NCBI GenBank assembly: GCA_012841565.1
Contig: DUUM01000172.1
Location: forward strand, 1 to 9,101
Source of the DNA: Candidatus Epulonipiscium sp.
GTDB lineage: Bacteria > Bacillota_A > Clostridia > Lachnospirales > Cellulosilyticaceae
Direction: 5' to 3'
DNA length: 9,101 nt
Positions 7,289 through 9,101 of this stretch are shown here, piece by piece (positions within the stretch are counted from its first letter, which is position 1; each line of letters opens with the position of its first letter). The notes beneath the pieces were generated by a model. It did not search any database and was not told the origin of the DNA. It worked only from the letters and a program-made list of their open reading frames with translations. A program made the position numbers and the translations under genes.

Positions 7289-7296
7289 CACCCCCT
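7289..7296 (-). promoter_or_regulatory. Large terminase SD overlapping the small terminase stop
   Basis: AGGGGGTG at 7296-7289 is followed by 6 bases and GTG at 7282. The SD shares bases with the TAG stop of the small terminase (7297-7295), so the two subunits are probably translated in a coupled manner. The GTG at 7291 is part of the SD and is an unlikely start. Confidence 0.65.
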
Positions 7297-7783
7297 ATAT
7301 ATATTTAAGAAACTTGTTTGTTGGTTTGTCTCCCGGTTGCCTAATTGCAATCTTAGCCCTAGCGGCAGGTGTTAACCCAAACTCAATACCTATTTTACGC
7401 ATTAGATCACTATATTTTATTTGTGCCTTAACCGCTGGATGCTCAATATTATTAGTAGCACCGCCTTTGTTGGTGTACTCCATAAACATACCTTCACTTT
7501 CTATCGTTTCCGTAGCCAGTAAATACTTAGAATAGGCATCACAATAGATTGCTAAAATTGATATGTCCACATTCGTCAAGAGTTCCAATTCTTCAAGTTC
7601 TGTTGCTATGCGCTCCCATTCTTCAAGCGCATTTTCGTCTAGCCAATTAGGTGCTCTTATGTTATCCGTGTTAGGTTTTAATTTTTCCTCATTGGCTTGC
7701 CTTCTTTTTATTTCAGCCTTAGTTAAATTGTTAGGATTGCCTTTTGCCATCTGTATGTTGATTGGAATAGCCTTTTTACTCAC
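7295..7783 (-). CDS. terS: Terminase small subunit, P27 family
   Basis: The 162-aa protein has the features of P27-type small terminases. It has a basic N-terminus (KKAIPINIQMAKGNPNNLTK), the PNWLDENALEEWERIATEL helix (about 45-63), a helical oligomerisation core with AIYCDAYSKYL, an EHPAVKAQIKYSDLMRKIG segment, and the near-invariant GLTPAARAKI (about 136-145) close to the end. It recognises the packaging start on concatemeric DNA and loads the large subunit. The start is GTG 7783 with an AAGGGGTGA SD four bases upstream. It stands 38 bases after the HNH gene with no terminator between, and its stop overlaps the SD of the large subunit. The cos or pac site recognised cannot be read from the sequence. 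Confidence 0.93.
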   Translation of the reverse strand: MSKKAIPINIQMAKGNPNNLTKAEIKRRQANEEKLKPNTDNIRAPNWLDENALEEWERIATELEELELLTNVDISILAIYCDAYSKYLLATETIESEGMFMEYTNKGGATNNIEHPAVKAQIKYSDLMRKIGIEFGLTPAARAKIAIRQPGDKPTNKFLKYI

Positions 7784-7821: not shown

Positions 7822-8811
7822 CTAGACTATGCTAAGTTGACCGTTTTCACTCTCTATATATCCATTACCTTTTTTAGAGTTACACTCCATGCAAGCTAAC
7901 CCTATGTTGCCCCATGTATGAGTACCGCCTTTTGAAACTGGGATTATATGTTCTATGCTCGGATATTTATCCTTTGCAATAAAAAACCCCTCTTTTGTTG
8001 TTGCGCAATCATTGTAATTACATCGCTCTCCACATATGTAACATATGCCTTTGTATTTCTTGTAAACCTTAGGTAATGTTATCGAACTATCATATTCGCC
8101 ATTTTCCATTAGTTTTTTCCCTCTTTTTTTATCACTCTTTTTTGAATATACATTTTTTTGTTTTTTTCTACATTCGTCCGAACAAAATACATGACTTTTT
8201 TTGTATTTTGTTTTAAACGTCACGCCACAATATTTACAGGTTACCGTTTTTTGTTTATATTTTTCAATCCTGCTAACCCTTAGTTTTTCTAATACCTCTA
8301 ATCTTTTTCTTTCCTCATACTCGTTTTCGCAATTATTACTACAAAAATCAGAAAACCCTTTTACAATCTTCTTTCCGCAACCTTTGCATTCTTTCGTGTT
8401 ATATTCTCTTTCGCAAGCACTGTCGCAAAACTCATCGTTACAGTCCCAGCTTATTTCCCTTTGGCATTGCAGGCATTCTTTTTTCTTACCTCTGCACCTC
8501 GGGCAACCAGGGTTTCCTTTTCTCGCTCTATCCGATAACGTGGTCGTTCTTACTCCCCACTCATGCCCGCACTCTTGGCACCGTACATCCGTAATTTCTC
8601 TGCCATTAATATATTTCCCTATTATTCTTATTCTACAAACATATATACTGTCCCACATCTCGTGCATGTGAGCTAATTTGTTAACATTGCCTTTGGCCGC
8701 TTCTTTTGCCGAGCATGTTTGTGAGCAATATTTATTTGGTTTATATATATTTCTAACTTCAAACATTCTCCCGCAATGCTCGCAAACCTTTTCTCTTGAC
8801 TCTTTACCCAT
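7822..8811 (-). CDS. HNH endonuclease with array of Cys-rich zinc knuckles
   Basis: Starting at ATG 8811 the product has 329 aa. The C-terminal HNH nuclease has CYICGERC (Cys257/260), the catalytic IEHIIPVSKGG (His288), WGN (Asn302) and LACMECNSKKG (Cys307/310, Asn311). Before it lie Cys pairs in series: CEHC/CSQTC (10-33), CQEC/CPRC (78-106), CLQC/CDSAC (113-133), CKGC/CSNNC (142-161) and CKYC/CSDEC (192-214). These are treble-clef or zinc-ribbon units likely to bind DNA. HNH genes beside terminases often help cos cleavage, but most are about 100-150 aa, so this one is unusually long. The frame extends to GTG 8820, but that codon is inside the GAGGTGATA SD. The sense strand is rich in A-runs (8124-8167). 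A homing-type nuclease is an alternative reading. Confidence 0.9.
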   Translation of the reverse strand: MGKESREKVCEHCGRMFEVRNIYKPNKYCSQTCSAKEAAKGNVNKLAHMHEMWDSIYVCRIRIIGKYINGREITDVRCQECGHEWGVRTTTLSDRARKGNPGCPRCRGKKKECLQCQREISWDCNDEFCDSACEREYNTKECKGCGKKIVKGFSDFCSNNCENEYEERKRLEVLEKLRVSRIEKYKQKTVTCKYCGVTFKTKYKKSHVFCSDECRKKQKNVYSKKSDKKRGKKLMENGEYDSSITLPKVYKKYKGICYICGERCNYNDCATTKEGFFIAKDKYPSIEHIIPVSKGGTHTWGNIGLACMECNSKKGNGYIESENGQLSIV

Positions 8812-8817
8812 ACCTAT

Positions 8818-8823
8818 CACCTC
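8818..8823 (-). promoter_or_regulatory. HNH gene SD that fixes the ATG start
   Basis: GAGGTG at 8823-8818 lies 6 bases before ATG 8811. The GTG within it (8820) would give a 332-aa product but has no SD of its own. The plus-strand gene at 8913 has the same GAGGTGATA sequence at the same distance from its start. Confidence 0.7.
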
Positions 8824-8829
8824 ACTTAT

Positions 8830-8858
8830 ATTATATCACACTTTGTAATACTTTTGAA
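8830..8858 (-). promoter_or_regulatory. Sigma-A-type promoter for the HNH gene
   Basis: A perfect TATAAT (8835-8830) with the extended TGA just upstream is preceded, 17 bases away, by TTCAAA (8858-8853; 4 of 6 match to TTGACA). The start of transcription would fall near 8824-8822, right at the SD, so the leader is minimal. The -35 box and spacer lie within the ACTT repeat array, which suggests repression by a protein bound there. No terminator separates the HNH gene from the terminase genes, so this promoter may also feed packaging genes. Confidence 0.7.
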
Positions 8859-8886
8859 TACTTTTAGCCACTTATTGATACTTTGT
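8837..8886. repeat. Five tandem 10-bp ACTT boxes, probable operator
   Basis: Five consecutive 10-base units are in exact phase: CACACTTTGT (8837), AATACTTTTG (8847), AATACTTTTA (8857), GCCACTTATT (8867) and GATACTTTGT (8877). ACTT is invariant at positions 4-7, and the consensus is close to AATACTTTTG. The array fills the space between the two divergent -10 boxes and ends on each side within 3 bases of them. Direct repeats at one helical turn are typical binding sites for cooperatively stacked ribbon-helix-helix dimers, and such a protein is encoded next door. Binding itself is inferred. Confidence 0.75.
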
Positions 8887-8894
8887 GTTATAAT
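8865..8894 (+). promoter_or_regulatory. Extended -10 promoter for the ribbon-helix-helix gene
   Basis: TATAAT at 8889-8894 carries the extended element TGT at 8886-8888. A weak -35-like TAGCCA (8865-8870, 4 of 6) is 18 bases upstream. Transcription would start near 8901, where the SD begins, so the mRNA has almost no leader. The upstream half lies in the ACTT array, consistent with autoregulation. Confidence 0.65.
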
Positions 8895-8912
8895 GTTTAT
8901 GAGGTGATAAAT

Positions 8913-9047
8913 GTGGGCAAAATTAAAACATCCATTAGTCTTGATAAAGAAGTGTACGATCAAATCAAAAAACTAGGAGACAAGGAAGATAGGAGCTTTA
9001 GTCAGCAAGTCAACAATATATTAAAGGACTACTTGAAAGATAAGTAG
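8913..9047 (+). CDS. Ribbon-helix-helix (Arc/CopG-type) DNA-binding protein
   Basis: This 44-aa gene is the only plus-strand gene in the window. It starts at GTG 8913, 6 bases after a GAGGTG SD. The short strand KIKTSISLDKEVY (3-15) is followed by helix DQIKKLGDKE and helix SFSQQVNNILKDYLK. That is the minimal ribbon-helix-helix fold, with the RSFSQQV turn typical of Arc/CopG-type repressors. The strand residues Lys5, Ser7 and Ser9 would face DNA. It acts as a dimer, and the ACTT array just upstream is the obvious candidate operator, making it autoregulatory and a likely repressor of the HNH promoter. No toxin gene is paired with it, so an antitoxin role is less likely. The ATG at 8911 is out of frame and gives only 21 codons. 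Confidence 0.88.
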   Translation: MGKIKTSISLDKEVYDQIKKLGDKEDRSFSQQVNNILKDYLKDK

Positions 9048-9060
9048 TCCTTGTTTTTTT
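9024..9060 (+). terminator. Intrinsic terminator overlapping the end of the ribbon-helix-helix gene
   Basis: AAGGACTACTT (9024-9034) and AAGTAGTCCTT (9042-9052) form a perfect 11-bp stem with a 7-base loop, followed by G and seven T (9054-9060). The last eight codons and the TAG stop (9045-9047) are inside the hairpin. On the opposite strand the stem is followed only by TTTAATAT, so it would be a weaker terminator there. Confidence 0.93.
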
Positions 9061-9101
9061 ACCCCTTTAGGTTTGATAAACGAAAATATCTTCAAGAAGG
9101 C

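What the first reader, a model, noticed from the sequence alone, without database searches (positions are those of the whole stretch)
8837..8886. Five 10-bp-phased ACTT boxes placed exactly between two divergent -10 elements
The spacing is perfect over five units, ACTT is invariant, and the array ends 1 base from the leftward -10 (8830-8835) and 2 bases from the rightward -10 (8889-8894). A ribbon-helix-helix gene sits at one end. This looks like a compact operator where stacked dimers would block both promoters at once, covering the -35 of the HNH promoter. That would tie a phage nuclease, and possibly packaging, to a tiny repressor that is not the usual lysogeny regulator.
Basis: partly seen in the sequence, partly recalled or inferred. 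Interest (0 to 1): 0.78.

Follow-up and report, generated by a model that had tools for sequence, protein, structure and literature searches.

The report
Mini-repressor cassette facing mobile endonucleases
A module of about 230 bases, made of a tiny repressor gene with its own terminator and a row of evenly spaced DNA sites between two back-to-back promoters, recurs in unrelated phages facing different DNA-cutting genes of the gene-jumping kind, so it looks like a portable switch for selfish genes.

Summary
In detail: ACTT five times at exactly 10 bp (8840-8883) between two extended -10 elements 53 bp apart, beside a 44-codon ribbon-helix-helix (RHH) gene; 0 of 400 simulated windows had five at period 10.

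Relatives change the meaning. Among nine loci, DNA homology is confined to a module of about 230 bp: divergent promoters, phased boxes, RHH gene, terminator at its stop. The left -10 and boxes 1-2 are more conserved than silent RHH sites. In 9 of 9 the facing gene is endonuclease-like, from mostly unrelated families (HNH, GIY-YIG, PD-(D/E)XK, CapR-type). Two cassettes lie where related phages have adjacent or overlapping genes. One relative fuses GIY-YIG to the RHH.

Best reading: a free-standing homing-endonuclease cassette with its own portable repressor/operator; RHH dimers on one DNA face would shut off endonuclease and RHH promoters together. Binding, repression and homing are untested, and more distant RHH relatives face other genes. 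Closest precedent: Arc-type repressors facing cas12k in CRISPR-associated transposons. My paper searches found no phage case.

The parts
8839..8888 (.). Operator: five 10-bp units (CACTTTGTAA TACTTTTGAA TACTTTTAGC CACTTATTGA TACTTTGTGT), ACTT in each
   Evidence: phased ACTT kept in 9 of 9 close loci
8830..8838 (-). Extended -10 (TGATATAAT) of the leftward endonuclease promoter
   Evidence: mean pairwise identity 0.90 over nine loci
8886..8894 (+). Extended -10 (TGTTATAAT) of the rightward RHH promoter
   Evidence: mean pairwise identity 0.82 over nine loci
8913..9047 (+). RHH (Arc/CopG-like) repressor gene, 44 codons, GTG start
   Evidence: phrog_3180 Arc-like repressor, E 2.8e-7; Pfam RHH_5 E 2.3e-4, below its cut-off; 57 relatives besides the window's own protein
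9024..9060 (+). Intrinsic terminator overlapping the RHH stop codon
   Evidence: -15.2 kcal/mol, z -4.79; a similar hairpin found by script in 8 of 9 loci
7822..8811 (-). HNH endonuclease with zinc-ribbon-like repeats (329 codons from ATG 8811), probable free-standing homing endonuclease
   Evidence: HNH PF01844 37.1 bits against cut-off 21.4 and HNH_5 (scanned without the first Met); phrog_1271 E 5.2e-33, phrog_144 not listed; start checked
7295..7783 (-). Terminase small subunit, phage gene on the left of the cassette
   Evidence: Terminase_4 E 2e-28, phrog_83

Best explanation
This is a free-standing homing-endonuclease cassette that carries its own mini-repressor. Shown by sequence comparison: a module of about 230 bp (leftward extended -10 promoter, 10-bp-phased boxes, rightward extended -10 promoter, RHH gene, terminator) is homologous between otherwise dissimilar phage loci, is joined to endonuclease genes of different families, and in two loci the whole cassette lies where related phages have none. 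Inferred: the RHH protein binds the boxes as dimers side by side on one face of the helix and, as it accumulates, shuts off its own promoter and the endonuclease promoter together. A genome entering a cell without the repressor would express both genes in a burst and then silence them, which would allow homing into a co-infecting or resident phage while limiting off-target cutting. In this window the endonuclease is the HNH gene next to terS.
For: Nine loci (W, L001, L003-L009; L002 is identical to L001 over the 3,193 bases of L001): 9 of 9 have ACTT repeated at 10 bp before the RHH gene, shuffled sets at most 3 of 9. In 36 of 36 pairwise DNA comparisons (1,500 bp each side where held; W has 189 bp to the right, L009 356 bp to the left) homology of 69.6-78.4% is confined to a stretch from -71..-166 to +106..+159 around the RHH start; the one other match is 53 bp inside the W and L002 HNH genes. 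Mean pairwise identity: left -10 0.90, boxes 1 and 2 0.75 and 0.84, right -10 0.82, against 0.49 at third codon positions of RHH, 0.43 in the left leader, 0.37 after the stop. The -10 hexamers are exactly 53 bp apart in 7 of 9 (L007 55, L009 61). In those seven loci TA or CA opens 34 of 35 decamers; next best phase 13 of 35. The facing gene is endonuclease-like in 9 of 9, the gene on the other side in 1 of 8, Fisher p 4e-4. Sites without the cassette: flank homologs 12 bp apart in SDFMU_Pfc (L003, 965 bp between them), overlapping in GBSV1 and phiRg519T2 (L007, 1,150 bp). A DNA scan blind to the protein (three boxes plus part of the leftward -10): 5 of 5 stretches lie beside an RHH gene, 4 of them already known from the protein search. 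L066 encodes GIY-YIG fused to this RHH type in one frame. The box pair is found at one site only in 11 of 12 phage records, none in the 12th, L004, whose boxes have mismatches.
Against: No binding, repression, cleavage or homing data. Over all 24 RHH loci looked at (L015, a 40% archaeal match, dropped) the divergent neighbour is endonuclease-like in 12; others face a second RHH or Arc-like gene (L010, L011, L013, L014, L070), an unknown gene near an integrase (L012), a C5 methylase (L065), or nothing evident (L019, L050-L052); L066 is the fusion. So the regulator is not bound to endonucleases. Boxes 3-5 are less conserved (0.64, 0.50, 0.65). Looser protein-blind scans are less clean: 10 of 15 and 5 of 17 beside an RHH gene. 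L008 and L009 lie in related phages, so the nine are not fully independent. The L009 gene is partial; L003 and L008 have no Pfam nuclease match and rest on PHROGs; L005 rests on Pfam. RHH_5 is below its Pfam cut-off; no fold match reached E 0.001. The window ends 54 bp after the RHH stop, so its own right flank could not be read. Strict operator pattern: 0 of 398 Bacillota genomes.
Confidence: 0.73

Rival explanations
1. The RHH-operator module is an independent small inserted gene (a 'moron') that merely tends to land beside endonuclease genes, because nuclease genes mark places of genetic exchange; it does not regulate them.
For: The module is discrete, with its own promoter and terminator. 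More distant RHH relatives sit beside other genes. A paper title and abstract opening report that nuclease genes lie at boundaries of genetic exchange between phages (PMC10448857, listing and passages only).
Against: In 9 of 9 loci the endonuclease is on the divergent side with a start codon about 100 bp from the RHH start, so the module supplies its promoter. The left extended -10 is the most conserved element measured (0.90). The other side shows an endonuclease in 1 of 8.
Confidence: 0.12
2. One reading: a phage regulator that ties a packaging-associated HNH nuclease, and perhaps packaging, to a small repressor.
For: In the window and in L001/L002 the HNH gene is followed by terS and terL; transcription from the leftward promoter could reach them.
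Against: Relatives of the cassette lie beside tail, portal/protease, scaffold-region or DNA-metabolism genes. The packaging-type HNH (phrog_144) is a separate gene in L002 and in Geobacillus phage GR1, where it adjoins terS.
Confidence: 0.06
3. Toxin-antitoxin-like pair: the RHH protein is an antitoxin and the nuclease a toxin.
For: RHH domains are common in antitoxins (passage in PMC8987985); weak Pfam matches to VAPB_antitox and BrnA_antitoxin; three sources name relatives 'CopG family antitoxin'.
Against: The genes are divergent rather than co-directional; the RHH is 44 codons with no evident extra toxin-binding tail; the same RHH type faces unrelated nucleases, which share no obvious binding surface.
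Confidence: 0.04
4. The phased T-tracts are a DNA-bending or promoter-strengthening element, not an RHH operator.
For: ACTTT at 10-bp spacing puts short T-tracts in helical phase, which can curve DNA (recalled, not computed).
Against: The array goes with RHH genes of two subfamilies and different leftward genes. YA and the C of ACTT are kept, and boxes vary while register stays.
Confidence: 0.05

Closest known systems
Arc_1 / Arc_2 mini-repressors of type V-K CRISPR-associated transposons (PMC9938897, passages read)
   Same: Small RHH (Arc-like, one type with RHH_5) genes encoded upstream of, and in reverse orientation to, the effector gene of a mobile element (cas12k); proposed repressors.
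   Different: Those proteins are 53-72 aa and tied to cas12k; here the RHH gene is 44 codons, the element is a phage endonuclease gene, the facing gene is swapped between nuclease families, and the operator is a 10-bp-phased array. Sequence relatedness was not tested.
T4 free-standing and intron homing endonucleases (Seg, Mob, I-TevI; PMC2988022, passages and section 14 read)
   Same: Endonuclease genes inserted between phage genes, held down by negative regulation.
   Different: In the passages read, regulation is by autorepression by I-TevI itself, promoter choice and RNA hairpins; no separate repressor gene is named. Here a separate RHH gene with an array is part of the cassette.
CapR and T5orf172 homing-endonuclease DNA-binding domains (PMC10448857, passages read)
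   Same: Two facing endonucleases (L004, L006) match the CapR homology domain.
   Different: CapR is a repressor derived from an endonuclease; here the repressor is an unrelated RHH protein.
RHH repressors with repeated operators (Arc, CopG, MetJ, omega, ParG; operator spacings recalled, not from a call)
   Same: Fold class and dimers side by side on repeated short sites; the best fold matches include CopG-DNA and Arc-DNA complexes, though not significantly.
   Different: 10-bp direct repeats of ACTT, one per helical turn, filling exactly the 53 bp between two divergent extended -10 elements.

Membership tests
Ribbon-helix-helix (Arc/CopG) regulators | Sequence match to a curated RHH family | tested here: inconclusive
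   phrog_3180 Arc-like repressor E 2.8e-7, but Pfam RHH_5 21.3 bits is below its cut-off of 26
Ribbon-helix-helix (Arc/CopG) regulators | Strand-helix-helix fold | tested here: inconclusive
   AlphaFold monomer: helices 12-22 and 29-43, only short strand pieces, pLDDT 76.8, pTM 0.48; 46 fold matches, mostly RHH proteins, none at E 0.001; best PDB sequence match AvtR E 0.036
Ribbon-helix-helix (Arc/CopG) regulators | Specific binding to its operator | not testable with these tools
   only co-conservation of boxes and gene was tested
Free-standing homing endonuclease | Known homing-type nuclease domain | tested here: met
   window HNH PF01844 above cut-off; GIY-YIG with NUMOD3 in L007 and L044; PDDEXK_5 in L005
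Free-standing homing endonuclease | Inserted where related phages have no such gene | tested here: met
   met for two relatives, L003 and L007; for the window itself the right flank is not held, so untested
Free-standing homing endonuclease | Cuts the cassette-free allele and is copied into it | not testable with these tools
   needs experiment
Packaging-associated HNH (HK97 gp74 type, label recalled; phrog_144) | Match to that family | tested here: not met
   phrog_144 is not among the 24 families listed for the window HNH at E 0.01; it is the best match of the second HNH in L002
Type II toxin-antitoxin | Antitoxin and toxin in one operon | tested here: not met
   genes are divergent
Arc_1/Arc_2 regulators of CRISPR-associated transposons | Next to cas12k | tested here: not met
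   the facing genes in the nine loci are HNH, GIY-YIG, PD-(D/E)XK or CapR-type

The most novel reading that the evidence does not exclude
A portable regulatory cassette (mini-repressor, 53-bp double promoter-operator, terminator) has been joined independently to several unrelated endonuclease families, giving selfish genes a built-in timer: expressed on entry into a repressor-free cell, then silenced, with the resident repressor also acting on incoming copies that carry the same operator.
Probability: 0.35. Interest if true: 0.85.

Novelty: new variant of a known kind. Interest (0 to 1): 0.66.

Why it matters
How free-standing homing endonucleases avoid harming the phage that carries them has mainly been studied in T4, where autorepression and RNA hairpins were found (PMC2988022). 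A repressor module of about 230 bp that travels with, and is swapped between, unrelated endonucleases would be another solution, would mark such genes in short contigs, and would be easy to test because the operator is compact and the protein has 44 residues. It would also be a small natural divergent-promoter switch.

Tried and rejected
Whole genome of the window: none held. The RHH protein alone was too short for a locus search, so an alignment was used. Phage records: no DNA match to 7822-9101; the two protein matches to the RHH at E 3e-3 are small viruses (41.5-42.5% identity) not followed up; none in plasmids or with P0005 in phages; with P0072 two Dulem virus 29 records at E 2e-3, not followed up. 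A search with the window HNH in viral contigs gave one short match, L016, not followed up; one with TerS gave L057 (31%), not followed up.

The looser three-box scan mostly returned stretches without an RHH gene: 5 of 17 with one, 11 without, L022 undecided because the held DNA ends 82 bases past the array start. In one search, 5 of 15 stretches are related coding sites without RHH. Genome searches: A1 4 of 398, A2 3 of 398, operator pattern 0 of 398 Bacillota genomes; the three genome loci other than L014 showed no endonuclease neighbour by reading the open frames, without a family scan.

Expected empty-site support from phage vB_BhaS-171 did not appear: neither flank protein of L003 matched its proteins at E 1e-3. 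Geobacillus virus E2, PM1 and TP-84 regions were fetched but used for no claim. The packaging gene in PV036453 (L056) matched no PHROG. Script one search found no terminator in L006, though the letters after its stop look like one.

Papers: 10 searches. Passages were read in PMC2988022 (12 of 23 places, plus section 14), PMC10448857, PMC10853773, PMC8987985 and PMC9938897; other papers were seen only as listings. None of these describes an RHH repressor facing a phage homing endonuclease; subscription papers and preprints were not searched.

Full report
Observation. The window is a phage structural and packaging region read leftward (major tail protein, capsid, protease, portal, TerL, TerS, HNH). 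At its right end ACTT stands at 8840, 8850, 8860, 8870 and 8880. Simulation shows this is not chance (0 of 400 windows with five at period 10). On both sides lies an extended -10 element, TGATATAAT leftward and TGTTATAAT rightward, 53 bp apart. The rightward gene is a 44-codon RHH gene, 8913-9047, whose terminator hairpin (9024-9052) includes the stop codon.

The protein. It matches the PHROG family of Arc-like repressors (E 2.8e-7); Pfam RHH_5 is below its cut-off. 57 other proteins were found, with K3, K5-S9 and E25-Q32 invariant among the columns of the 58-row alignment. The AlphaFold monomer has two helices and short strand pieces. Fold matches are mostly RHH proteins including CopG and Arc bound to DNA, but none is significant. 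RHH identity is therefore likely rather than proven.

Relatives. The alignment brought 13 loci from viral contigs and 2 from genomes. Upstream of the RHH gene in the nine closest distinct loci (W, L001, L003-L009) the same picture returns: a leftward extended -10, then decamers beginning TA or CA with ACTTT in the first ones, then a rightward extended -10. The two hexamers are 53 bp apart in 7 of 9; L007 has 55 and L009 61. In the seven, TA or CA opens 34 of 35 decamers, and in decamers 4-5 of the six non-window loci 11 of 12, a number that 0 of 20,000 shuffles reached. Conservation falls from 0.90 (left -10) and 0.75-0.84 (boxes 1-2) to 0.49 at third codon positions of RHH.

A discrete module. 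Between any two of the nine loci (36 pairs) DNA similarity starts near the left gene's start region and stops near the RHH terminator; the one other match is 53 bp in the HNH genes of W and L002. The left genes are mostly unrelated in protein sequence: blastp at E 1e-3 links only W-L001, L003-L007 and, weakly, W-L004. They are HNH with zinc-ribbon repeats (W, L001), GIY-YIG (L007) and a GIY-YIG-like homing-endonuclease family (L003), CapR-domain endonucleases (L004, L006), PD-(D/E)XK (L005), HNH of phrog_374 (L008) and a partial endonuclease (L009). On the other side of RHH lie a packaging-type HNH (L002), tail terminator, head morphogenesis gene, methylase remnant, unknown, portal, nucleotide kinase and unknown.

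Insertion. In L003 the cassette separates the homologs of two genes that are 12 bp apart in Bacillus phage SDFMU_Pfc (46.8% and 55.1% identity). In L007 it separates portal and protease homologs that overlap in GBSV1 (66.0%, 53.9%) and phiRg519T2 (57.3%, 52.4%). In L005 a 58-residue frame right of RHH repeats the beginning of the methylase left of the endonuclease (73% over 30 residues), as an insertion scar would. In all nine loci with readable flanks the RHH gene runs against the neighbouring phage genes (for W only the left side is visible).

Blind scans. A pattern of three boxes plus part of the leftward -10 finds 5 stretches in viral contigs, 5 of 5 beside an RHH gene, 4 of which the protein search had already found. 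Looser patterns give 10 of 15 and 5 of 17. Three new loci (L039, L044, L048) carry a second RHH subfamily (KKKIAITID type) with the same TACTTT boxes; their facing genes are an endonuclease VII/HNH-like gene, GIY-YIG with NUMOD3, and a replisome-organiser/HNH fusion. A scan with the second subfamily added L065, L066 and L070; L066 fuses GIY-YIG to the RHH domain. Over all 24 loci looked at, 12 have an endonuclease directly facing; the exceptions are listed under evidence against.

Mechanism. With one box per helical turn, RHH dimers would line up on one face. The first boxes lie 4 bp upstream of the leftward -10, so even partial filling should block the endonuclease promoter; full filling reaches the rightward -10. 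The single place of the box pair in 11 of 12 phage records speaks for local control. This step is inferred.

Comparison. T4 endonucleases are held down by autorepression, promoter choice and RNA hairpins (PMC2988022). The nearest precedent I found is the set of small Arc-like repressors encoded against cas12k in CRISPR-associated transposons (PMC9938897). I know of no description of a swapped RHH module on phage endonucleases, and ten paper searches showed none, within the limits of that library. I class it as a new variant of a known kind.

Noticed in passing
L066:2695-3132 (+): One open frame joins a GIY-YIG nuclease domain to the RHH domain; another small RHH-like frame precedes it.
   Followed up: partly
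L005:3110-3286 (-): A 58-residue remnant repeats the start of the methylase gene that lies beyond the endonuclease, as if the insertion had split or replaced an allele.
   Followed up: partly
L010, L011, L014: More distant RHH relatives face a second RHH gene across similar AATACTTTTGAATAC-type boxes in L010 and L014, in early or replication regions.
   Followed up: no
L022:82-108 (-): Three ACTTT boxes stand before a gene of phrog_1281 (unknown function); the held DNA ends before any RHH gene could be seen.
   Followed up: no
L048:4290-4832 (+): The facing gene fuses a phage replisome-organiser N-terminus to an HNH domain.
   Followed up: no
L065:1969-2901 (-): The RHH of the second subfamily faces a C5 cytosine methylase that appears as two separate frames.
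   Followed up: no
L052:1390-1420: In an unnamed Bacillota genome an RHH gene is preceded by a TACTACTTT repeat at 10 bp, with no endonuclease seen nearby.
   Followed up: no
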